Below, piece after piece: positions 1-9,207 of a stretch of 64,000 nt of DNA. This DNA is from Actinoallomurus bryophytorum (GTDB lineage: Bacteria > Actinomycetota > Actinomycetes > Streptosporangiales > Streptosporangiaceae), in NCBI RefSeq assembly GCF_006716425.1, contig NZ_VFOZ01000001.1, positions 2,790,001 through 2,854,000 on the forward strand, written 5' to 3'. Each line of letters starts with the position of its first letter. The first letter of the stretch is position 1. A model generated the notes under the pieces. The model was not told the DNA's origin, made no database searches, and saw only the letters and a list, made by a program, of their open reading frames with translations. A program made the translations under genes and the position numbers.

Positions 1-334
1 CCCGCGCCTCGGGGAGTGAAGTCGCTCGCGACGGCGAGGACCGGCCACGGGGCCCTGAGAGGTGCGCCGTCCCCTGCCACGGGTAGCCCGGTGTGATCTG
101 GGCGACGAGCGCGCCGAGTACCGCCTCGGTGAGCGTGTCGGTGAGCTCCTGGTCGCCCACGGCCGCGACGGGTGATGACGCGCACTGGGTCGCCAGGAGG
201 GCGACCGCCCGGTGCGGCACGTCCTCGGCCAGGGCCGAGGACAGGTGACCGGCCATCTCCGATGCCGGGGCATGCATGATGTGCGCCGCTGTGACCAGGG
301 CTGATGAGGGCTGTGCGAATCCGGCGTACTCCAC
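1..334 (-). CDS. Unrecognised protein, N-terminal part (runs off the window)
   Basis: An open frame with strongly GC-biased third positions reads leftward off the window edge. The longest reasonable start is the GTG at 334; an ATG at 277 is an alternative. No clear ribosome-binding site precedes either. The visible residues are mostly helical, alanine-rich and soluble, with no signal peptide or membrane segment. I do not recognise a family. It is divergent from the decayed quinone reductase at 500. It could be a small regulator or a gene fragment; only the codon bias supports it as real. Confidence 0.38.
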   Translation of the reverse strand, partial: MEYAGFAQPSSALVTAAHIMHAPASEMAGHLSSALAEDVPHRAVALLATQCASSPVAAVGDQELTDTLTEAVLGALVAQITPGYPWQGTAHLSGPRGRSSPSRATSLPEAR

Positions 335-499
335 GTCGTCAAGCGTACGACTGCGGGGCGATGCGCCCGCCCCGCCGTTCGGCCGGGGACGAACCGTCCG
401 AACGGACGGCGAGATCGTCCCCGCGCTCTGTCGACCATGGGTGAGACGGCCGGTCACGCGGCCGGTCGGATGTCGTTCTCACGCTGGAGGAGCGGACCA

Positions 500-890
500 A
501 TGCAGGCAATGGTTTTCGAGGAGTTCGGCGGCCCCGAGGTTCTTCGGCTCAAGGAGATCGAGGAGCCCCACGCGGGTCCAGGCGAGGTGCGCATCGCCGT
601 ACGGGCGATCGGCGTCAACCCGATGGACTACAAGGTGCGTCGCGGCTGGTTCGAGGAGTTCATGCCCACGCCGCTGCCGTCCGTACCGGGCCTGGAGGCG
701 GCCGGGGTCGTCGACGAGGTGGGCGCGGCCCGAAGAGGTGGCCGCAGTGATCAGTACGCAGCTGCGCGAGGTCGCCGACGGCACACTTCAGGTGCGGATC
801 GACGAGGTACTTCCGCTGGCCGAGGCGGCGAAGGCCCAGCAGAAGAGCGAGGGCGGCCACGCCCGCGGCAAGCTCGTGCTCATCCCCTGA
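500..890 (+). pseudogene. Decayed NADPH:quinone reductase (MDR family), internal deletion
   Basis: From the ATG at 500, preceded by a GGAGG-like site, about 75 codons read as the start of a zinc-independent medium-chain reductase: MQAMVFEEFGGPEVL, then VRAIGVNPMDYKVRRG and the PGLEAAGVVDEVG segment. At about 721-732 the homology jumps, in another frame, to the extreme C-terminus of the same family (EVLPLAEAAKAQQKSEGGHARG, ending KLVLIP, stop 890). Roughly 200 codons holding the Rossmann NADPH-binding domain are missing. The remaining pieces match both ends of an enzyme normally about 310 residues long, so this is a deletion derivative and cannot be active. Confidence 0.8.
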
Positions 891-973
891 TCCTGTGCGC
901 CTGATGACGTCCCTCGACGCATAGCCAACGTGCCCGTCTTCACTTGTTTCACGCATTGCCTGAGGAGCTTCCG

Positions 974-1467
974 ATGACCCCTGTCCTTACTCAGCGCCTG
1001 CTCCAGTCCGACACCGCTGTCGGCTTTTGGACGCTTGACCCCGCTCGCACGACGGTCCGCATCACCCACAAGACCTTCTGGGGCATGGGGACCGTGAAGG
1101 CGGCGTTCGCCGACGTGCAGGGTGGCGGCGAGATCAGATCCGACCATTCCGTCACAGACGTCATACCGTGGGTGCGGCATCGATCGACACCGGGCACGGG
1201 AAACGCGACACACATCTGCGCGGTCGCAGGTTCCTGGACGTCGAGAAGTATCCCAGCATCGTCATGACGGTGCAGTCCGCGCGGACCTCCGGCACGGCAC
1301 TCGAACTGGCCGGCGAGATGGCGATCAAAGGTGTACGGGAGCCTCCCCATTTCCTCGAGCGCCAGGACGCCGGCCGGCGGGCGGCCGCCGTGGCCATACG
1401 GTCACTGGATGTCGGACGCGGGTGCCGTTTCGCCGGTCAACTCTTCAGCTGGAGGGTGGCGAAGTAG
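974..1467 (+). pseudogene. Frameshifted YceI family protein
   Basis: The ATG at 974 follows a GAGGAG site. The first ~45 codons fit the YceI lipocalin-like family (TAVGFWTLDPARTTVRITHK). Homology then moves to another frame from about 1165, where AASIDTGHGKRDTHLRG and FLDVEKYPSI are typical YceI signatures. The frame ends at 1467 without the usual C-terminal strands. At least one indel lies between about 1125 and 1165. Intact YceI proteins are about 170-190 residues and bind isoprenoid-type lipids. The 3' end overlaps the convergent methyltransferase gene by ~30 bp. Confidence 0.78.
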
Positions 1468-2276
1468 GCCGTGGAGTTCTTGGAGTCGACGACGTCGATG
1501 AGTTCCCAGCCGGCGCCGGTCGCGAGCTGAGCGAGTTCGCGCGGTGCGAGGCACAGGTAGTGGAACCAGGGCGTTGCCATGTCTCGATAGCGAATTCGCA
1601 TGGTGCGCTGTCCGGCGATGCGCCCCGCTTGGAGGTTTCGCCGGTTGTAGGCAAGATGTTCGGGGTCCGTCGAGTCGGTGCGGTTGTTTCCCTGGCCCAC
1701 GATGACGGCGCCGGGTTCGGCCATCGCGGCTAGGGCCCGCAGGAACTCCGGTGCCCGTTCGCGGCTGTCCAGCAGGCCGAAGTTGGCGCCCAGGAGCAGG
1801 AAGCTGTCGTATCGCGCTCCGGTCGCGGCGTGCTCGTCCACCGTGCCGTGAAAGACACTTCGTATCCCCTGCTGCCTGCACACGTCCACCGCACCGGCAG
1901 AGACGTCCATCGCGGTGACGGGGTGGCCACGGTCCTGGAGTGCGTGTGCCGCTCGTCCTCCGCCGGCGCCGATGTCCAAGACCTTGCCCTTGAGCAGGTC
2001 CAGTGCCCGGCGATCCTCCTCCGGCCATTGGTCGATCGCCGCGATCCAGTTCGTGACCAGGGCGGCTTTCACGACGCCGTCATCGCGTTCCACGATCTGG
2101 GACACCGGGGCGGCGTTCGGTTCCCGCGACACCTGGTAGGCGGCACGCAGCGACTCACCGATGGCATCACCGATGCGAGGACCGAGCCGGTCCGGTCCGT
2201 CGCCTTTACTTACCTGGTCCTCGCCGGGCTCATCTCCTACGACTTCTGTGAGGGTACGGACCGTGGGGGTGTCCAT
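1437..2276 (-). CDS. Class I SAM-dependent methyltransferase
   Basis: A 279-residue protein with the SAM-binding signature KVLDIGAGGGR (motif I at about residues 99-108), followed by an acidic ribose-binding strand end (VTAMDVS) and a motif-II region around DSFLLLGANFGL. The fold is a single-domain class I methyltransferase; the substrate cannot be read from sequence. The start at 2276 lies inside the last ~13 codons of the upstream MFS gene (40-bp overlap), so the two are probably translationally coupled. The open frame continues far upstream, but that part is a shadow of the MFS gene. With the transporter and the tiny ORFs upstream, it is the only modifying enzyme in the locus. Acting on the tiny peptides is inference only. 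Confidence 0.85.
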   Translation of the reverse strand: MDTPTVRTLTEVVGDEPGEDQVSKGDGPDRLGPRIGDAIGESLRAAYQVSREPNAAPVSQIVERDDGVVKAALVTNWIAAIDQWPEEDRRALDLLKGKVLDIGAGGGRAAHALQDRGHPVTAMDVSAGAVDVCRQQGIRSVFHGTVDEHAATGARYDSFLLLGANFGLLDSRERAPEFLRALAAMAEPGAVIVGQGNNRTDSTDPEHLAYNRRNLQAGRIAGQRTMRIRYRDMATPWFHYLCLAPRELAQLATGAGWELIDVVDSKNSTAYFATLQLKS

Positions 2277-3565
2277 CGCGTCTCCATTGCCAGATGGGTG
2301 ATTGAAATGTTCCCGGGTGGGTCTTCGGTCGAAGGCACCGCGCGGTGCGGTAGGCGCGGCGAGGGCGAGGAGGGGACCGTCTGGGCGCGTCTCCACGCCG
2401 GAGCCGCTGAGATCGCCGCCGCCATGGCGGCCGTGCCCAGGAGTGCGATGGCGTACGCCGGCCCCATGTCGGTGTCGGCGAGCGCACCGGAGATGAGGAA
2501 ACCGCATCCCTGGCCGGCGGTGATGCCGGTGATCGCGACCCCCATGGCACGGCCGCGATATTCCTTGTCGGCCCGCTGGACGAAAAGCGCGTTGAGCGGG
2601 GCGGCGAAGGCGGCGCCGGCTCCGGAGACGGCGAACAACACCAGCACGACCGGCAGCGGGGGCCGCAAGGCCAGCGGCACCAGAGCCGCTCCGGTCAGTA
2701 CCGCGAACGGCGTGACGAGCCGTAGCCGGAGCGGTGGTGCCAGGGTGGAGGTCATCAGTACGGCTCCGGAGGCGAAGCCGAAGGCAGAGGCGGCGAGTAT
2801 CAGCCCCGCCAAGGTCGCGCCGCCGTGCAGTGACCGGGCGTAGGGGTAGATGATCGCCTCTGGCGCGAAGGCGAACATGGGCACGAACCAGACCAGGAGC
2901 AGGCACGCACGCAGCCAGGGATCACCGAAGACGTACCGGAGCCCGTCACGCGAGTCGCCCACGACCGTCTTCGCCGGGTCGTGGCGTACGGCGACGGGGC
3001 GGGAGCGGACGCCGTAGACGGTGATGGCGGCCGACGCGGCGAAGGTGGCTGCGTCGATGGCCAGCGCGGTGACGGGTCCGACGAGCGCGATGAGCGCGCC
3101 ACCGCCGGCGGCGCCGACGACCTGGCAGAGCTGGGTCGTGATGGTGCGCAGACCGTTGCCGGCGACGTACTGCTCGCCGTCGAGGACCTCTGGCAGGATC
3201 GCCGAGCGCGCCGCGACGAAGAGCGGGGTGAACGTGTGGCCGGCGAACAGGAGCACGATCATCAGCCAGATCGGCATTCCTGGAATGACCAGCGCGGCCA
3301 CGATCAGCGCACGCATCAGGTCGCAGCAGATCATGAGCGCCCGGCGAGGCAACCGGTCGGCGTAGGCGCCCAGTACGGGGCCGGCCAATGCGGGAAGAAA
3401 CGCCGAGGCGTACGCCAGGCCGGTCAGCAGAGCCGAGTTCGTTCGGTTGAATACCAGTACGGCCACCGCCACGGCGGCCAGCTGGTCACCGACGAGCGAA
3501 ACGATTAGGCCGAGATACAGGTAGCGAAATTCGCGCACCGTGAACAGGTCGCGGTACCGGACCAT
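2237..3565 (-). CDS. MFS transporter
   Basis: A 442-residue protein with about 12 hydrophobic segments. The N-terminus (YRDLFTVREFRYLYLGLIVS) and the loop-2/3 motif GAYADRLPRR are typical of the DHA3-like / enterobactin-exporter (EntS-type) branch of the major facilitator superfamily. The start at 3565 follows a CCGGGAG site. The last ~40 residues are soluble, and their coding sequence overlaps the methyltransferase start. Upstream on the same strand lie a 13-bp hairpin and four tiny ORFs, so transporter and methyltransferase probably sit in one transcript with them. Exporters of this branch often accompany small-molecule or peptide clusters. An export role is likely but the substrate is unknown. 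Confidence 0.92.
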   Translation of the reverse strand: MVRYRDLFTVREFRYLYLGLIVSLVGDQLAAVAVAVLVFNRTNSALLTGLAYASAFLPALAGPVLGAYADRLPRRALMICCDLMRALIVAALVIPGMPIWLMIVLLFAGHTFTPLFVAARSAILPEVLDGEQYVAGNGLRTITTQLCQVVGAAGGGALIALVGPVTALAIDAATFAASAAITVYGVRSRPVAVRHDPAKTVVGDSRDGLRYVFGDPWLRACLLLVWFVPMFAFAPEAIIYPYARSLHGGATLAGLILAASAFGFASGAVLMTSTLAPPLRLRLVTPFAVLTGAALVPLALRPPLPVVLVLFAVSGAGAAFAAPLNALFVQRADKEYRGRAMGVAITGITAGQGCGFLISGALADTDMGPAYAIALLGTAAMAAAISAAPAWRRAQTVPSSPSPRLPHRAVPSTEDPPGNISITHLAMETRWTPPRSVPSQKS

Positions 3566-3588
3566 GAATCTCCCGGGACATTAAGGGG

Positions 3589-3620
3589 GGCCGGTGGGCA
3601 TCATGGCATGCCCACCGGCC
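3589..3620 (-). promoter_or_regulatory. 13-bp hairpin between tiny ORF array and MFS gene
   Basis: A perfect inverted repeat with 13-bp arms (3589-3601 and 3608-3620, arm GGCCGGTGGGCAT) and a 6-nt loop lies about 24 bp upstream of the transporter start. In the minus-strand RNA it follows the fourth tiny ORF. No U-run follows, only a C-rich stretch. It could be a partial terminator or attenuator, or a processing/stability stem that sets the ratio of tiny-ORF RNA to transporter mRNA. Confidence 0.6.
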
Positions 3621-3658
3621 GGTCTGCGGCACGCTGTCACCGCAGCGCAGAGGTCGGA

Positions 3659-3685
3659 TCAGGTCCAATTAATGATGCTTCGCAC
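3659..3685 (-). CDS. Tiny ORF, unit 4: MRSIINWT
   Basis: An eight-codon ORF, GTG start and TGA stop, encodes MRSIINWT. A GAGGAG site lies 4 nt before the GTG and forms part of a CCTCG/CGAGG inverted repeat. Trp is penultimate, as in the other three units. It is the most diverged copy: its 3' hairpin has a different stem (CTGCGG/CCGCAG) but the same 6-bp/10-nt geometry. Below usual gene-calling length limits; support comes from its place in the array. Possibly a precursor of a modified or signalling peptide, or a regulatory upstream ORF. Confidence 0.48.
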   Translation of the reverse strand: MRSIINWT

Positions 3686-3763
3686 GGGTCTCCTCGTTCG
3701 AGGGGCCCATGAAGTCTCAACGCCGTACGGCGGGCACGTCGTTATTGCCGTGCCGGGCCGGCG

Positions 3764-3787
3764 TTAGTCCCACTCGACGGTGTTCAT
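3764..3787 (-). CDS. Tiny ORF, unit 3: MNTVEWD
   Basis: A seven-codon ORF, ATG start and TAA stop, encodes MNTVEWD. The leader carries GAGAGGAGG just before the start. Compared with unit 2 the ORF differs at two positions: one synonymous (ACC/ACT) and one giving a conservative Glu/Asp change. The sequence after the stop is more diverged. That pattern suggests selection on the peptide. A GGCACG/CGTGCC hairpin follows at 3733-3754. Confidence 0.58.
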   Translation of the reverse strand: MNTVEWD

Positions 3788-3864
3788 CGCCCTCCTCTCT
3801 TCGAAGGGTTCGGTGTCTCATCACCGAATGACAGGCACGTCATTCTCGCCGTGCCGGATCAGCA

Positions 3865-3888
3865 TTAGTCCCAGTCGACAGTGTTCAT
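3865..3888 (-). CDS. Tiny ORF, unit 2: MNTVDWD
   Basis: A seven-codon ORF, ATG start and TAA stop, encodes MNTVDWD. A GGGGAGG site lies 6 nt before the ATG and is part of a CCCCTCGAGGGG palindrome, so the site could be masked by pairing. A GGCACG/CGTGCC hairpin follows at 3834-3855. Acidic residues flank the Trp on both sides, as in unit 3. The same frame can be extended far upstream, but the longer reading runs through unit 1 and has no conservation. Confidence 0.58.
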   Translation of the reverse strand: MNTVDWD

Positions 3889-3967
3889 TGCTATCCTCCC
3901 CTCGAGGGGTTCGTGGCGTCTAATCGCCGCACGATGGGCACGCCATTTTCGTCGTGCCGAGACGACC

Positions 3968-3988
3968 TTACTCCCAGATGAGATCCAA
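3968..3988 (-). CDS. Tiny ORF, unit 1: MDLIWE (TTG start)
   Basis: A six-codon ORF from a TTG start, with GGGAGG 6 nt upstream, ends at TAA and encodes MDLIWE. The Trp-acidic C-terminus matches units 2 and 3. A GTG overlapping the ribosome-binding site gives no array-like peptide. The hairpin at 3937-3958 follows. It is the first clear unit of the array; about 90 bp upstream a diverged stretch (MRYEMW reading, ATG at 4078) may be a decayed fifth copy. Confidence 0.48.
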   Translation of the reverse strand: MDLIWE

Positions 3989-4365
3989 CAGTCACCTCCC
4001 TCGAAGGGTGCTCGGCGCTCACCGTACTGCACAGAGGTCGGGTTGATCACTAGTCCGTTTCCACATTTCATAGCGCATCATTCCGATCGCGGTCTGTGGT
4101 CGGGCCACTCCATTCCTGGTGCTGCGCTCATGACCGTTGAGTGTCTCGACACTGCCGCGACTGCCGAGACCGGACCTACGACCAGCCGCAAGCGTCGATG
4201 ACACAGCATTTCGCAACAGGCTGCCGTCCTCGGTGTGCAAATTGAACCTGGCCACTGGCCACAGGCGCTCCTAGCGTCCACCTATGTGCGGGCCATTTCG
4301 GCACGCGGAGTATGCAGGTCAGCACTGCGCCAGACAGGAGTCATCGTGACCGCGAGGAGTCTGTG

Positions 4366-4950
4366 ATGGGTTTCCGACCCGACCACCGGCTGGTGACTCC
4401 GATCGACAGAGACGCGTTTCACCGCGCTGCCCGGCTGCGGGAGCTGGGCATCAAGGAGGAGCCCGACCCTGAGTTCGACGAGTTCGCCCGGCACCTGGCC
4501 CAGACGCTGGACGCACCGTTCGCCATGGTCAATATCATTGGCGCAGAACGGCAGTATTTCGCCGGGTTGTACCCCTCCTCTCGGGACCGGGGGGTCGCCC
4601 CGGAGGTGGACCCGTTCCGGGCAATGGCCTGCGACCATGGTTATTGCATGTACGTGGTGACGCGGCAGCACGCGATGGCACTCGACGAGGTGATGGACTA
4701 CCACCTCTTCGCCGGCAATCCAGTGGTGGACAAGATCGGGATCCGCGCTTATCTGGGCGCCCCACTGATCCACCCGACGGGGACCCTCGGCACCATCTGC
4801 ATTCTGGACACCAAACCCCACGACTGGGGCCACGGTGGGATCGCATTCATCAAGGCTCAGGCTGCGGAGCTTGTAGAACGGATCGAGCGGCGAGCGAGGC
4901 TCCTGAAGGAGCCCCAATATCCTTCCGGTGCCGCTTCCCTGAGGATTTGA
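4366..4950 (+). CDS. GAF domain protein
   Basis: A 194-residue soluble protein whose body (about residues 25-180) is a single GAF domain: ARHLAQTLDAPFAMVNIIG at the start, then the central Cys/His-containing stretch MACDHGYCMYVV and the C-terminal GIRAYLGAPLIHP strand. The ATG at 4366 follows a GAGGAGT site; an earlier in-frame ATG at 4312 has no better support. Stand-alone GAF proteins of this kind in actinomycetes sense small ligands or redox state and act on partner kinases or regulators. No output domain is present. It is divergent from the tiny-ORF array, with ~380 bp between its start and unit 1. Confidence 0.85.
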   Translation: MGFRPDHRLVTPIDRDAFHRAARLRELGIKEEPDPEFDEFARHLAQTLDAPFAMVNIIGAERQYFAGLYPSSRDRGVAPEVDPFRAMACDHGYCMYVVTRQHAMALDEVMDYHLFAGNPVVDKIGIRAYLGAPLIHPTGTLGTICILDTKPHDWGHGGIAFIKAQAAELVERIERRARLLKEPQYPSGAASLRI

Positions 4951-4958
4951 GAGGGCCC

Positions 4959-5021
4959 GGTCCAATCACCGACCTGTTATTCCGTATCGAAGGCCTGACT
5001 CAGCATTCCGAAACCGGGTGA
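4959..5021 (+). pseudogene. Vestigial 3' end of a PucR-like gene
   Basis: About 20 codons ending at the stop 5019-5021 read GPITDLLFRIEGL then TQHSETG. This resembles the last residues of the PucR regulator that ends at 8180 (GPSARYELWFALRV, then GQHSVTR). The DNA similarity continues past both stops (CTGTGCA-GGTGA at 5031 and 8190). The simplest reading is that a paralogous regulator once preceded the DUF4331 gene and only its tail plus promoter remain. The match is short. Confidence 0.35.
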
Positions 5022-5129
5022 CCCGTGTCGCTGTGCAGGGTGATTCTGGTTGACGTCCATTGTGGCCCCTACGCTCGGGCGATCTGACGCCGATCATTCT
5101 GGCCCTACTTTCCGCGACGGAGTACACGT

Positions 5130-6137
5130 ATGTCTCATCATCTTGATTCGCCACTTGCGCGGCAGGACCCACGTCTGGACATCAGCGATGTCTATGTTTT
5201 CCGTGGCGCTGCGGCAACCGTGTTCATCATGAATGTCAACCCTCTTTCCGGGGCTGGAGGTTTTCACCCGGAAGGACGGTATGAGTTTCGCGTTGACACC
5301 GACGGTGACGCGGTCGAGGACCACATCTATGTGCTCACCTTCGGCGAGTACGACGCCGACGGTGGTCAGTCCTTGGAGGTGCGATGGTCTGGCGGTCCCG
5401 ACGCGCTGGACCGTGAGGCGGTCGGAATCCTGCTGGCACGGGGCAGGACCGGTCAGGAGATCGCCGGTGCCGGTGGCGTACGGGTCTGGGCGGGCCCCGC
5501 GGCGGATCCGTTCTTCATCAACGGCGCCGTCGTCGGCGCGGTCAAGGAGGCGGTCGCGAACGGCACGCCCTTCGATCTCTCCGCCGTGGACTACCGCGAT
5601 CCGGCGAACCTCTTCGCCGGGACGAACGTGAGCGCGATCGTGCTGGAAATCCCCGATGAGGTTTTTGGGGTCACCAAGATCGGCCTTTGGGGGACCACGG
5701 CTCTGGCGACCGACTCCGGTGGCTGGCGGCAGATCAATCGCTGCGCGACGCCGCTCATCAACACGATTTTCAATCCGGATGACTCAGATCGGTCCAGCGA
5801 GTACAACACGACCCACCCGAGCAGGGACCGTGCGCTGTACGGCCCGATCGTCAGCGACCTGGTCACCAAGGTCGTGGCGGCCACCGGTAGCAGCGACGAC
5901 CCGGCGGCGCATGCGCGGCGGGTGGTCGACGAGCTCTTCCCGGACATCCTTACCTACCAGATCGGAACCCCGGCGGAGTTCGGGTTCGCCGTCCGTAACG
6001 GTCGCGGGCTCACCCACTGCGCACCCGAGGTGATGTTCGCGCTCGTGCTCAACAAGGCCGTACCCCTCGGCCTGGACAGCAGCTCGGCCACCGGCGCTCT
6101 ACGTCCCGACTTCCCGTACCTCGCTTCGCCGATGTGA
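5130..6137 (+). CDS. DUF4331 family protein
   Basis: A 335-residue protein beginning MSHHLDSPLARQDPRLDISDV, the hallmark DUF4331 N-terminus, followed by the YVFRG segment and repeated acidic/Gly-rich beta segments. The family has no established biochemical role. No signal peptide is visible. A paralogue starting MSHHLDTPLA is encoded at 25074-26096. The PucR-type regulator follows 168 bp downstream and may control it. The ATG at 5130 is chosen because the family begins at this Met. Confidence 0.9.
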   Translation: MSHHLDSPLARQDPRLDISDVYVFRGAAATVFIMNVNPLSGAGGFHPEGRYEFRVDTDGDAVEDHIYVLTFGEYDADGGQSLEVRWSGGPDALDREAVGILLARGRTGQEIAGAGGVRVWAGPAADPFFINGAVVGAVKEAVANGTPFDLSAVDYRDPANLFAGTNVSAIVLEIPDEVFGVTKIGLWGTTALATDSGGWRQINRCATPLINTIFNPDDSDRSSEYNTTHPSRDRALYGPIVSDLVTKVVAATGSSDDPAAHARRVVDELFPDILTYQIGTPAEFGFAVRNGRGLTHCAPEVMFALVLNKAVPLGLDSSSATGALRPDFPYLASPM

Positions 6138-6305
6138 CGCCGGCCGTCCGCGCGAGCTCCAGGTCCGAACGCCGCGCGAACAGGCCAATTCGCCACGAAT
6201 GCCGACGTCCGTAACATTCACGCCGATCTAGGGATGGTCTTCGTCGTCGAGACGTAATATTCGACGACCTTGCATGGGCGGTACGGAAGAAGAGGTGACG
6301 GTGAC

Positions 6306-8180
6306 GTGCCTACGGTCAGCGCGCTCGTGAACCGGACCGTGCCTGGAGCGCGGTCCCTCACGGAAGAGATCTCCGACTCGATGGAGGTCGAGTCGGCGGT
6401 CATCGTCCCCGACGGGGATCTGGCCGGCTGGTCCGACACCGATGTGGAGGCCCTCCGGCGGATGCTGGTGATCCTGCCGTTGTCCGTGGAGCCGCCCCAG
6501 GATCGGGTCGAGACCACCGTACGACGTGTCGGCGCCGGCCGTGCTGCGGGCGTGCTCCTCGTCACGGGCTCCACAGGAGCAGGCTCGCTCGATCTCGAAT
6601 CCCTGGCCGCACTGGCACGTCACCATCGGATGCCGCTGCTGGTCGCACCGGATGACCCGTCCCGGGTGTGGGCGCGCATGGTGACGATCATTCGGGACGA
6701 GCGGAACCACGCTCTGGAGCGCACCGGCAACGAACTGCGCGAGATGCACCGTGAGTCGACCCGGCCCGACGGCCTGAAGCGCCTCCTGCGGCGGCTGGCA
6801 CGGCAGGTCGGCGGAAGCGTCGTACTGCTCGACCGGGACGGCGCGCCGCTGCATGCCTTCCCGGAGCTCCCCCGTGACGTTCTCAAGCACGTGGCGACCG
6901 ACATCGAGCGGGTCATGACCGGCGAGATACGGGCCGCGGCGGTCGACATCGGCGACGGCGCCGTTCGCATCCAGTCGATCGGCGCCGAACAGACGCGTAC
7001 CACGCTGATCGTGGTACGGAAGGAACGGTTCTCTCCGACCGCACAGGACCTCATCACGGACGCCTCGCGGCTCCTGGCACTGCGCTGGCGCGTGGACGGC
7101 CTCACCCGCCGGCAAAGGCGTGCCGACCTCGTCGAGACACGCACCAGGGAAGTGGTGCTCCACCTGCTGATGACGGCCAACGTCCAGGCCGCCCGGCGGG
7201 TGGCCGGTGCGCTCGGCCCGAGCCTGGCCGAACAGATCCGCGTCTACGTGATGGCGGGTCCGGCCGAGGGCAGGGAACAGGCCGTGGCCTACTGCCAGCG
7301 GATGTCGGGCGGCCGGGCATGGATCGTACGGTGCCCCGTTTACATCGGCCACGTCATCATCCTGGCCCCGGTCACCGACGATGAGAACGAGGTGGAAGAC
7401 GCTCTGCGCGACTACGCCGGCCGGGTGAACGGCGTCGACGTCGGCGGCAGTACCCCGGTGGCGCTCCGGGAGATGGTGTCGGGATACTCCCAGGCGATCC
7501 ACGCGCTCGCGGTGGCGAGGGGAGGCACTGAGCACTACGCCCGGTTCAGCCCGCGCGGAGACATGACGGCCTTGGTACGCCCACGGGGACACAAGTGGGC
7601 GACCTCTACGCTCGAACCGCTGACCCGCTACCGGCCCCAGCGCGGCCAGGATCCCGACGCCGCCGAGTTGATCGTCACTCTGCGTTCCTGGCTGGACTTC
7701 TACGGCGGCGCCGCGCGGCAGCTGAAGATCCACCGCAACACCCTGGCAGCACGGCTACGGCACATCGAGCAACTTTTCGGTCATCCATTGGATGACCTCG
7801 AGACGCAGTCGAGACTGCATCTGGCCCTGCGCATCCTCGATGGCCCGGAGGCAGACGACGGCCCCGCGACCCTGGAGGCGGTTCTCGATGATCCCGACGT
7901 GCGCCGATGGGCAGAGATGCAGATGATGCCGCTGCTCAGCCGGGATCCGGAGCTCTTCATGAACACGTTGCGCGTGTGGCTGGGTAAGAACGCCCGCATC
8001 GAGGCGACCGCGTCGGCACTCGGCATCTCGGTCCCGGGCACGCGCAAGCGGCTGACGCGCATCGAGGAGGTTCTCGGACGCTCACTCCTGAGTGGCCCGT
8101 CGGCGCGCTACGAGCTGTGGTTCGCCCTGAGAGTTCACGACGCGTCATCCGAGCCGGGTCAGCATTCCGTTACCCGGTGA
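6306..8180 (+). CDS. PucR family transcriptional regulator with two C-terminal HTH copies
   Basis: About 624 residues from the GTG at 6306, preceded by GAGGTGA; an ATG at 6270 is an in-frame alternative. The N-terminal ~120 residues fit the PucR purine-catabolism sensor domain, followed by a GAF/GGDEF-like middle. The PucR DNA-binding helix-turn-helix lies around QLKIHRNTLAARLRHIEQLF. About 90 residues later a second, diverged copy appears (ASALGISVPGTRKRLTRIEE), followed by a matching LWFALRVHD tail. Ordinary PucR proteins have one. It lies between the DUF4331 and DUF574 genes, all on the plus strand. Confidence 0.9.
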   Translation: MPTVSALVNRTVPGARSLTEEISDSMEVESAVIVPDGDLAGWSDTDVEALRRMLVILPLSVEPPQDRVETTVRRVGAGRAAGVLLVTGSTGAGSLDLESLAALARHHRMPLLVAPDDPSRVWARMVTIIRDERNHALERTGNELREMHRESTRPDGLKRLLRRLARQVGGSVVLLDRDGAPLHAFPELPRDVLKHVATDIERVMTGEIRAAAVDIGDGAVRIQSIGAEQTRTTLIVVRKERFSPTAQDLITDASRLLALRWRVDGLTRRQRRADLVETRTREVVLHLLMTANVQAARRVAGALGPSLAEQIRVYVMAGPAEGREQAVAYCQRMSGGRAWIVRCPVYIGHVIILAPVTDDENEVEDALRDYAGRVNGVDVGGSTPVALREMVSGYSQAIHALAVARGGTEHYARFSPRGDMTALVRPRGHKWATSTLEPLTRYRPQRGQDPDAAELIVTLRSWLDFYGGAARQLKIHRNTLAARLRHIEQLFGHPLDDLETQSRLHLALRILDGPEADDGPATLEAVLDDPDVRRWAEMQMMPLLSRDPELFMNTLRVWLGKNARIEATASALGISVPGTRKRLTRIEEVLGRSLLSGPSARYELWFALRVHDASSEPGQHSVTR

Positions 8181-8259
8181 CCATCTCACTGTGCAAGGTG
8201 AACCTCGCTGCGTACGAGGGGCCGCGCTTACTGTCGACGAGGCAGTTCTCAGGCGCTCG

Positions 8260-9207
8260 ATGACCCTCCGTGGCGTACGCGCCACGGCTGACGGGATGGA
8301 CGTGAACCAGCGACAGACCTCATCGCCGCAGGGCAATCTGCAGGTGCTGGCACTGCGCCACGAGACCGGCCCGAGCGCGACGCCGCACACCCTCGGCATC
8401 CGACCGCCCCGTCGGCCGAGTCTGGATGCCACACCGAGCGTCGCGCGCGTCCACAACTATCTTCTCGGCGGCAAGGACAACTTCCTCGCTGATCGTGAGT
8501 TCGCGCACCGGCTGCTCGAGCTCGCGCCGAGCGCACCGGCGGTGTTGCGCGCCGACCGTGACTACATGAGACGGGTGGTACGCCACCTCGCGGGGACCTG
8601 CGGGATCGCGCAGTTCATCGACATCGGCACGGGCCTTCCGGACGAGAAGAACGTCCAGCAGGTGGCGCACGAGGTCAACGCCGACGCTCGCGTCGTCTAC
8701 GTCGACAACGACCCGATGGTGCTGACGCATGCTCGTGCCATCCTGGGCGGCGATCATCGAGTGGCGGTGGTGGAGGGTGATCTGCGGACTCCCGACGGGT
8801 TCCTCCAGCATGAGGCGACCCGCCGTCTCATCGACTTCTCCGAGCCGGTCGCGGTGCTGGCGATCGGCGTTCTGCACTTCCTGCACTCCGACGACGATCC
8901 GCACGGGATCGTCGCGCATATCCGGGACATGATGGCGCCGGGCAGCTACCTGGCCATCTCGCATCTTGTGGCTCGCCCTGAGACGATCCGCGGCGCCCAG
9001 CTGGCCCATCGATCCCTCGCACGGGGGTTCGTCCGCGAGAAGGAGGAGATCAGGGCCTTCCTCGACGGCTTCGTACTGGAGCCGCCCGGACTCGCCTCGG
9101 TGTCCCGGTGGCGGCCGGGAACAGCGGAGGCCGATGAGCGCGACGTGTGGCTCTATGCGGGTCTCGGCGCACTTCGGCCCAGGGAAACAACCCCGATGTC
9201 CCACTAA
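8260..9207 (+). CDS. DUF574 SAM-dependent methyltransferase
   Basis: About 315 residues. PSVARVHNYLLGGKDNF, the SAM-binding FIDIGTGLPDEKNV and VVYVDNDPMVLTHARA are diagnostic of the actinobacterial S-adenosyl methyltransferase family (DUF574, Methyltransf_19). The family is expanded in actinomycetes and its substrates are mostly unknown. The start is uncertain: GTG 8191, ATG 8260 and ATG 8296 are all in frame. The later ones better match family length, since only 20-50 residues normally precede the PSVARV motif. The roadblock gene follows after 16 bp. Confidence 0.9.
   Translation: MTLRGVRATADGMDVNQRQTSSPQGNLQVLALRHETGPSATPHTLGIRPPRRPSLDATPSVARVHNYLLGGKDNFLADREFAHRLLELAPSAPAVLRADRDYMRRVVRHLAGTCGIAQFIDIGTGLPDEKNVQQVAHEVNADARVVYVDNDPMVLTHARAILGGDHRVAVVEGDLRTPDGFLQHEATRRLIDFSEPVAVLAIGVLHFLHSDDDPHGIVAHIRDMMAPGSYLAISHLVARPETIRGAQLAHRSLARGFVREKEEIRAFLDGFVLEPPGLASVSRWRPGTAEADERDVWLYAGLGALRPRETTPMSH

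What the first reader, a model, noticed from the sequence alone, without database searches (positions are those of the whole stretch)
3659..3988. Four tandem micro-ORFs (6-8 codons) with a penultimate Trp
On the minus strand four ribosome-binding sites at 100-102 bp steps each start a tiny ORF: MDLIWE (TTG), MNTVDWD (ATG), MNTVEWD (ATG), MRSIINWT (GTG). All end hydrophobic-x-Trp-x-stop. Units 2 and 3 differ by one synonymous and one Asp/Glu change, while the sequence after the stop differs more. Ribosomal precursors this small are known: biarylitide bytA genes encode pentapeptides. No described family that I know has this motif. An MFS transporter and a methyltransferase follow on the same strand, so the locus could be a minimal modified-peptide or signalling cluster.
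Basis: partly seen in the sequence, partly recalled or inferred. Interest (0 to 1): 0.92.

Follow-up and report, generated by a model that had tools for sequence, protein, structure and literature searches.

The report
Tiny tandem genes for tryptophan peptides
Four back-to-back genes of only six to eight codons in an actinomycete belong to an apparently undescribed family of tiny peptide genes with tryptophan near the end, often next to an export pump, so they look like a very small peptide-secreting or signalling system.

Summary
In detail: four SD-led micro-ORFs (6-8 codons, Trp second from last) lie at 100-102 nt steps before an MFS exporter and a methyltransferase. Of 52 comparable mini-ORFs in the window 5 have Trp there; 4 of the 5 are these. 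Searching with the neighbours found kin: 16 of 120 homologous MFS loci carry such a micro-ORF (Trp second from last in 15 of 16), 5 of them in tandem; a motif search added two loci away from MFS genes. Seven close methyltransferase loci sit beside such a gene (one has lost its Trp codon) or beside Cys-free LanL-type lanthipeptide precursors whose cores (DSTWT, DSSWS) resemble micro-ORF cores; a third LanL precursor repeats DSTWP, as in micro-ORF MTRMDSTWP. At 5 of the 16 MFS loci the micro-ORF is not upstream of the MFS; in one it is a free-standing three-gene unit with its own terminator. A cis-acting leader peptide therefore cannot explain the family, though it remains possible for the 11 upstream cases, the window's included. 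Best reading: minimal leaderless peptide genes whose product is exported and sometimes modified. Translation, export, methylation and role are untested.

The parts
3968..3988 (-). micro-ORF 1, LDLIWE-stop (TTG start, read as Met), SD GGAGG
   Evidence: the orthologous unit in Actinomadura DC4 starts ATG and stops before the Trp position
3865..3888 (-). micro-ORF 2, MNTVDWD-stop, SD GGAGG
3764..3787 (-). micro-ORF 3, MNTVEWD-stop, SD AGGAGG
   Evidence: one synonymous and one Asp/Glu difference from micro-ORF 2
3659..3685 (-). micro-ORF 4, VRSIINWT-stop (GTG start, read as Met), SD AGGAG
3937..3958 (-). small hairpin GGCACG-N10-CGTGCC behind micro-ORF 1
   Evidence: read; fold of most of it -6.9 kcal/mol, not better than shuffles (z -0.8)
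3834..3855 (-). small hairpin GGCACG-N10-CGTGCC behind micro-ORF 2
   Evidence: read; -10.8 kcal/mol, z -1.9
3733..3754 (-). small hairpin GGCACG-N10-CGTGCC behind micro-ORF 3
   Evidence: read; -10.5 kcal/mol, z -1.3
3589..3620 (-). strong 13-bp hairpin between micro-ORF 4 and the MFS gene, tail CCCCTTAA (terminator-like stem, weak T tail)
   Evidence: -29.6 kcal/mol, z -6.4; the simple terminator scan does not list it
2237..3565 (-). MFS transporter (MFS_1/MFS_3, TIGR00900-like), proposed exporter
1437..2276 (-). class I SAM-dependent methyltransferase (Methyltransf_23/25); start at ATG 2276 chosen by me

Best explanation
The four micro-ORFs are peptide genes of an apparently undescribed family. 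Each makes a leaderless peptide, here 6-8 residues, with Trp second from last; tandem copies raise the dose. The peptide, or its C-terminal core of about five residues, is exported by the neighbouring MFS and in this branch is probably methylated by the adjacent class I methyltransferase. In sister clusters the same kind of core (D-[ST]-x-W-x) is carried behind a leader, in two of three cases as repeats, and given to a LanL-type lanthipeptide synthetase. The result would be a small exported peptide signal or natural product. Supported by sequence: the genes, their peptide-level similarity, the links to MFS, methyltransferase and LanL. Inferred: translation, export, methylation, processing and role.
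For: Micro-ORFs with the same Trp at 16 of 120 homologous MFS loci found without using the motif; 23 of the 27 W-type rows among 199 SD-led micro-ORFs in 1.28 Mb belong to them. Tandem copies at six loci: window, G231, G051, G366, G348, G345. Only the last five codons (DTRWD) are shared by the two G231 units. Conservative changes between G230 MKREPSWG and G145 MRREPSWT and inside the G051 array. Same methyltransferase (66-81% identity) beside LanL precursors with cores DSTWT and DSSWS; G002 LanL precursor with three DSTWP and one DSTWS against micro-ORF MTRMDSTWP. MFS clade in which all five members sit beside a D[ST]xW peptide gene. At five MFS loci the micro-ORF is divergent, convergent or behind the MFS.
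Against: No transcript, ribosome or mass data. 104 of 120 MFS loci show no such micro-ORF (58 were scanned only 600 nt upstream). The methyltransferase is absent from 12 of 16 MFS loci. DC4 keeps the unit without Trp; the G002 peptide runs eight residues past Trp. The last residue and the core vary widely. The window MFS sits on a long branch, outside the D[ST]xW clade. Eleven of 16 loci, the window included, also have the order expected of an attenuator. Two motif-search loci have no MFS within 1.5 kb. pN/pS 0.47 comes from pairs chosen for similarity.
Confidence: 0.62

Rival explanations
1. Cis-acting leader peptides: ribosomes stall near the Trp codon or stop, mask the hairpin and let transcription reach the MFS gene, as for macrolide-inducible MsrDL.
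For: Order micro-ORF, strong hairpin, MFS at 11 of 16 MFS loci, best single hairpin -19 to -35 kcal/mol, 0-38 nt behind the stop. The MFS is distantly like Mef(A) (62.6 bits against a cut-off of 675). MsrDL is a six-residue leader that stalls at its stop codon and obstructs a terminator (passages of PMC10314930).
Against: At five of 16 MFS loci the micro-ORF is not upstream of the MFS. Tandem copies without a strong terminator between them. LanL precursor cores with the same D[ST]xW motif. No competitor pairing for the hairpin arm at p below 0.05 in 11 loci (lowest 0.07), though direct masking would need none.
Confidence: 0.2
2. Leaderless signalling peptides that are never modified: the MFS exports them and a nearby regulator senses them after uptake; the methyltransferase link is a side branch.
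For: Divergent AfsR/SARP regulator with NB-ARC and TPR at G230 and G145; PucR-type regulators near the window array and beside the second G231 array (27% identical). Leaderless 8-9 residue communication peptides with intracellular receptors are known in Firmicutes (passages of PMC10518010).
Against: The regulators differ from locus to locus; no receptor or uptake system was identified. The window regulator lies more than 2 kb away with two genes between. All close methyltransferase loci sit beside a peptide gene or its remnant.
Confidence: 0.1
3. Chance: repeats of a non-coding element that happen to hold short frames.
For: Units 2 and 3 alone do not separate ORF from flank (p 0.09); each unit carries a small hairpin.
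Against: W-x-stop frames with SD sites recur at 14 other MFS loci (plus G002 with Trp inside) in unrelated flanking sequence; reversed-pattern control gave 0 hits against 7.
Confidence: 0.03

Closest known systems
Biarylitides (bytA pentapeptide genes)
   Same: Unannotated minimal precursor gene without leader, sometimes in several copies: 18-bp gene, up to six copies in a Lysinibacillus strain (abstract start, passages of PMC13417212).
   Different: Biarylitides pair an MxYx[HYW]-type peptide with a cross-linking P450. Here the motif is W-x-stop, the partner is an MFS, and no P450 was seen in the window locus. One family member (MRRDPAWD in G010) lies about 0.2 kb behind a P450 nearest to OxyB proteins.
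Class IV (LanL) lanthipeptide clusters
   Same: Sister clusters with the same methyltransferase have a RamC_N/kinase/LanC-like synthetase nearest to LanL, and precursors with a leader and DSTW or DSSW cores.
   Different: The cores lack Cys, so lanthionine cannot form from them. The window locus has no LanL; its genome holds only distant relatives at 29-32% identity.
Leaderless communication peptides (LCP/SIP) of Firmicutes
   Same: Mature 8-9 residue peptide encoded directly by an ultra-small ORF, exported without a leader (passages of PMC10518010).
   Different: LCPs are aliphatic/aromatic and partnered with RopB-type receptors; the exporter is unknown there. Here Trp is second from last, an MFS is the partner, and no RopB-type regulator was seen.
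MsrDL and related stalling leader peptides
   Same: 6-9 residue ORF, hairpin, then a resistance or efflux gene at 11 of 16 MFS loci.
   Different: Five MFS loci have no MFS gene behind the micro-ORF; tandem copies; LanL-linked cores with the same motif.

Membership tests
Biarylitide | pentapeptide MxYx[HYW]-type precursor | tested here: not met
   window peptides are LDLIWE, MNTVDWD, MNTVEWD, VRSIINWT
Biarylitide | adjacent cross-linking P450 | tested here: not met
   no P450 among the proteins scanned at window 1437-8180; not every ORF was scanned
Class III/IV lanthipeptide | LanKC/LanL synthetase at the locus | tested here: not met
   no synthetase beside the array; best G000 matches 29-32% identity, far away. 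Met in sister clusters L013, L014 and in G002
Class III/IV lanthipeptide | precursor with leader and Ser/Thr plus Cys core | tested here: not met
   micro-ORFs have no leader; the DS[TS]W precursors of the sister clusters have a leader but no Cys. In one search, of 34 synthetase loci 3 have such precursors, 27 have Cys-containing ones, 4 show none
RiPP in the wide sense | ribosomal peptide with post-translational modification | not testable with these tools
   methyltransferase linkage only
Stalling leader peptide / attenuator | micro-ORF in the 5' leader of the regulated gene | tested here: inconclusive
   true at 11 of 16 MFS loci including the window, false at 5
Stalling leader peptide / attenuator | terminator whose formation depends on the ribosome | tested here: inconclusive
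   strong hairpins present; no competing pairing found; stalling not testable
Leaderless communication peptide | RopB-type (RRNPP) receptor next door | tested here: not met
   none recognised at the loci whose neighbours were scanned; regulators are AfsR/SARP-TPR, PucR, AraC, TetR types
Daptide methyltransferase | NF041820 score at or above its cut-off | tested here: not met
   36 bits against a cut-off of 175

The most novel reading that the evidence does not exclude
A distinct class of leaderless peptide genes in actinomycetes: cistrons of mostly 6-9 codons, often in tandem, ending Trp-x-stop, whose products are exported by dedicated MFS pumps and optionally decorated by a methyltransferase, a Cys-free LanL pathway or a P450. 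The same core exists both as a naked micro-ORF and behind a lanthipeptide leader, so it would be a natural test case for how precursor peptides gain or lose leaders.
Probability: 0.5. Interest if true: 0.9.

Novelty: new variant of a known kind. Interest (0 to 1): 0.8.

Why it matters
Genes this small escape annotation. If real, they add a family of very small exported peptides to actinomycetes, a rich source of drugs, and give concrete masses to look for. The link between naked micro-ORFs and leader-bearing LanL precursors with the same core makes the origin of RiPP leaders testable, and the free-standing three-peptide unit of G051 is a very small system in which to test peptide export by an MFS. 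Ten full-text searches of the open library listed no paper that I recognised as describing it; only listings and passages were seen, and subscription papers and bioRxiv preprints outside the library are not covered.

Tried and rejected
Rfam scan of window 1-9000: one hit only, E 0.97, taken as chance. Competitor of the hairpin arm: none at p below 0.05 in 11 loci; for G002 the script picked a later, larger hairpin than the small one just behind the micro-ORF. Methyltransferase homologues at about 50% identity are common in family f37 (142 of 250 genomes); the upstream stretches of 33 loci (31 distinct) were printed and read by eye, and the scan found no W-type micro-ORF in them, so they look like an unrelated single-copy gene. 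Methyltransferase homologues at about 40% (15 loci, L039-L053): no MFS or synthetase match at E 1e-8 in the fetched stretches. Promoter scan of the array: none found. Structure prediction of the methyltransferase could not be started, queue full on all five tries, so no fold search was made. Nearest solved relatives of the methyltransferase are 9khp and 9klx, named only class I SAM-dependent methyltransferase; no paper found under those codes. The pattern was narrow and missed the window array. Considered and set aside: biarylitide, daptide, pure attenuator, chance.

pN/pS used 10 pairs chosen by me for similarity; it is biased and not used as proof. Rows dropped: four W-type rows (L162, L048 twice, L129) were treated as background, although L162 is itself the flank of an MFS locus; one of the other 23 rows is an alternative start of a counted ORF. 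One search showed three more weak W-type frames (one in L259, two in L265), also treated as chance. One of the 7 hits (G286:C60) is out of frame and was dropped. Of the 120 MFS loci, 58 were scanned only in the 600 nt upstream, so micro-ORFs on their other side would be missed.

Full report
What was checked. In the whole window 52 mini-ORFs of 4-12 codons have an SD site and 5 have Trp at that place; four of the five are these. Downstream on the same strand are an MFS transporter (2237-3565) and a class I methyltransferase (1437-2276). Inside the window the DNA is only suggestive: units 2 and 3 match at 22 of 24 nt in the ORF and 56 of 75 nt outside (p 0.09).

Relatives through the methyltransferase. 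Searches of the genus (8 genomes), the family (297), two further genera (54 and 65), a class sample (394) and the named collection gave seven loci with a close homologue: the window and six at 66-81% identity to it: Actinomadura sp. DC4 (L012, G006), G002 (L016), G231 (L037), G266 (L038), Nonomuraea sp. NEAU-A123 (L013, G294) and N. zeae (L014, G312). In G002, G231 and G266 an MFS gene precedes the methyltransferase and one SD-led micro-ORF precedes the MFS: MIRMDTKWPPLALIFE, MTRMDSTWP (GTG start) and MTRKDTVWD. In DC4 there is one unit, matching window unit 1, and no MFS before the methyltransferase; the unit stops where the Trp codon would be. In the two Nonomuraea loci the methyltransferase follows a synthetase of 881 or 875 aa; RamC_N, kinase and LanC-like domains were found in the L013 protein, and both proteins are nearest to class IV LanL, at 600 and 622 bits against a cut-off of 650. 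The precursor before it ends IDSTWT (L013) or holds DSSWSLAH four times and DSSWSLAQ once (L014). G002 has a 74% identical synthetase on another contig whose precursor holds DSTWP three times and DSTWS once. These cores lack Cys. Of 34 synthetase loci looked at, 3 have such precursors, 27 have precursors with Cys and 4 show none. A D-[ST]-x-W core shared by naked micro-ORFs and LanL precursors next to the same methyltransferase is the strongest sign that the micro-ORF peptide is a product.

Relatives through the MFS. Two MFS searches (293 family genomes; 325 class genomes with an 8-row profile) plus the paralogues gave 120 distinct MFS loci whose surroundings were scanned (30, the second G231 copy, 28 new ones, three, and 58 fetched; scans). 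Sixteen carry a micro-ORF with the Trp, second from last in all but G002. Upstream of the MFS (11): window (4 units), G002, G231 first copy, G231 second copy (MRHSDTRWD and MSKDTRWD), G266, G230 (MKREPSWG), G145 (MRREPSWT), G286 twice (MYNRGFIWE, MYNRGNIWW), G010 (MRTLGWG), G345 (MPHNKIWT). Divergent (2): G051 (MRRSLDWT, MKREFHWT, MRRTLDWA) and G093 (MRRDVVWG). Facing the 3' end of the MFS (2): G366 (MRGWKWS twice, GTG starts) and G348 (MRGADWA, MRGADWC). Directly behind the MFS on the same strand (1): G242 (MRDITWR). The other 104 showed none that I accepted. In a quick MFS tree of 17 rows, the four micro-ORF loci with D[ST]xW peptides and the N. zeae MFS, which lies divergent to the DSSW precursor, form one clade (SH-aLRT 100), the N. 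zeae protein being sister to that of G266 (94); the window MFS is on a long branch elsewhere.

Background rate. In 1.28 Mb of held sequence 199 distinct SD-led micro-ORFs of 4-14 aa were found; 27 rows have Trp at -2, of which 23 (one an alternative start) belong to the loci above and 4 were treated as background. A motif search of 11 whole genomes gave 7 hits and none for the reversed control. Six are in frame: four at known loci and two new ones, MRHTSWS in G345, which is a tandem pair 67 nt apart with one synonymous difference, and MRRDPAWD in G010, behind a P450 whose nearest solved relatives include OxyB proteins. Neither new locus has an MFS homologue in the stretch of about 1.5 kb on each side.

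Leader peptide or product? Eleven MFS loci have the order micro-ORF, strong hairpin, MFS, also the order of an attenuator, and the MFS is distantly like Mef(A). MsrDL, a six-residue leader, stalls at its stop codon and obstructs a terminator (passages of PMC10314930). But in G051 three micro-ORFs, each behind AAGGGAGG or AAAGGAGG, end in a hairpin with a T tail and are followed by a convergent TetR-type gene; G093 has one such unit; in G242 the micro-ORF is the cistron behind the MFS, with a hairpin after it; in G366 and G348 it faces the 3' end of the MFS. A leader peptide of the MFS cannot explain these, nor easily the tandem copies without strong terminators between them, nor the LanL cores. 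No competitor for the hairpin arm was found in 11 loci, though direct masking by a stalled ribosome needs none. I give attenuation 0.2 and allow that both uses may coexist.

What it probably does. The common ground is a short peptide with Trp second from last, usually with a basic residue near the N-terminus (not in three of the four window peptides), plus an exporter. Methylation is inferred from linkage; the target atom is unknown. In 12 of 16 MFS loci no such methyltransferase lies in the fetched stretch, so there the peptide may be unmodified or modified otherwise. Regulators nearby vary: AfsR/SARP with NB-ARC and TPR (G230, G145), PucR type (second G231 copy; window, two genes away), AraC (G010), TetR (G051). 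This resembles the leaderless communication peptides of Firmicutes (passages of PMC10518010) in logic, not in parts.

Limits. Everything rests on sequence. The methyltransferase structure could not be predicted. Papers: search listings with the starts of abstracts; passages only of PMC13417212, PMC10314930, PMC10518010 and PMC10206099 (a LanKC subgroup that makes His-to-butyrine cross-links, a precedent for a nucleophile other than Cys). None was read whole.

Noticed in passing
window 944-1267, plus strand: A 107-aa frame that looks to me like the start of a YceI-type protein, possibly broken; this is recall, not a search result.
   Followed up: no
window 5130-6137 and 6270-8180, plus strand: A DUF4331 protein followed by a PucR-type regulator (HTH_30); a distant relative of the regulator (27% identity) lies directly before the second G231 array (L164 6372-8261).
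   Followed up: partly
L013 1293-3938, L014 1344-3971, L090 (G002:C20): A LanL-like synthetase clade whose precursors have DSTW or DSSW cores without any Cys, so its product cannot be a normal lanthipeptide.
   Followed up: partly
L273 (G010:C402), about 115-1305 and 1515: An OxyB-like P450 gene about 0.2 kb before the micro-ORF MRRDPAWD; it may link the family to P450-made peptides.
   Followed up: partly
L055-L087 (family f37): A methyltransferase about 50% identical to the window's is present in 142 of 250 genomes of family f37 with no micro-ORF beside it in the loci looked at; its role is unknown.
   Followed up: partly
window 3683-3708, 3784-3816, 3886-3915, minus strand: The SD site of units 2-4 can pair into a small hairpin (z -0.8 to -2.3 against shuffles), which might dampen translation.
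   Followed up: partly
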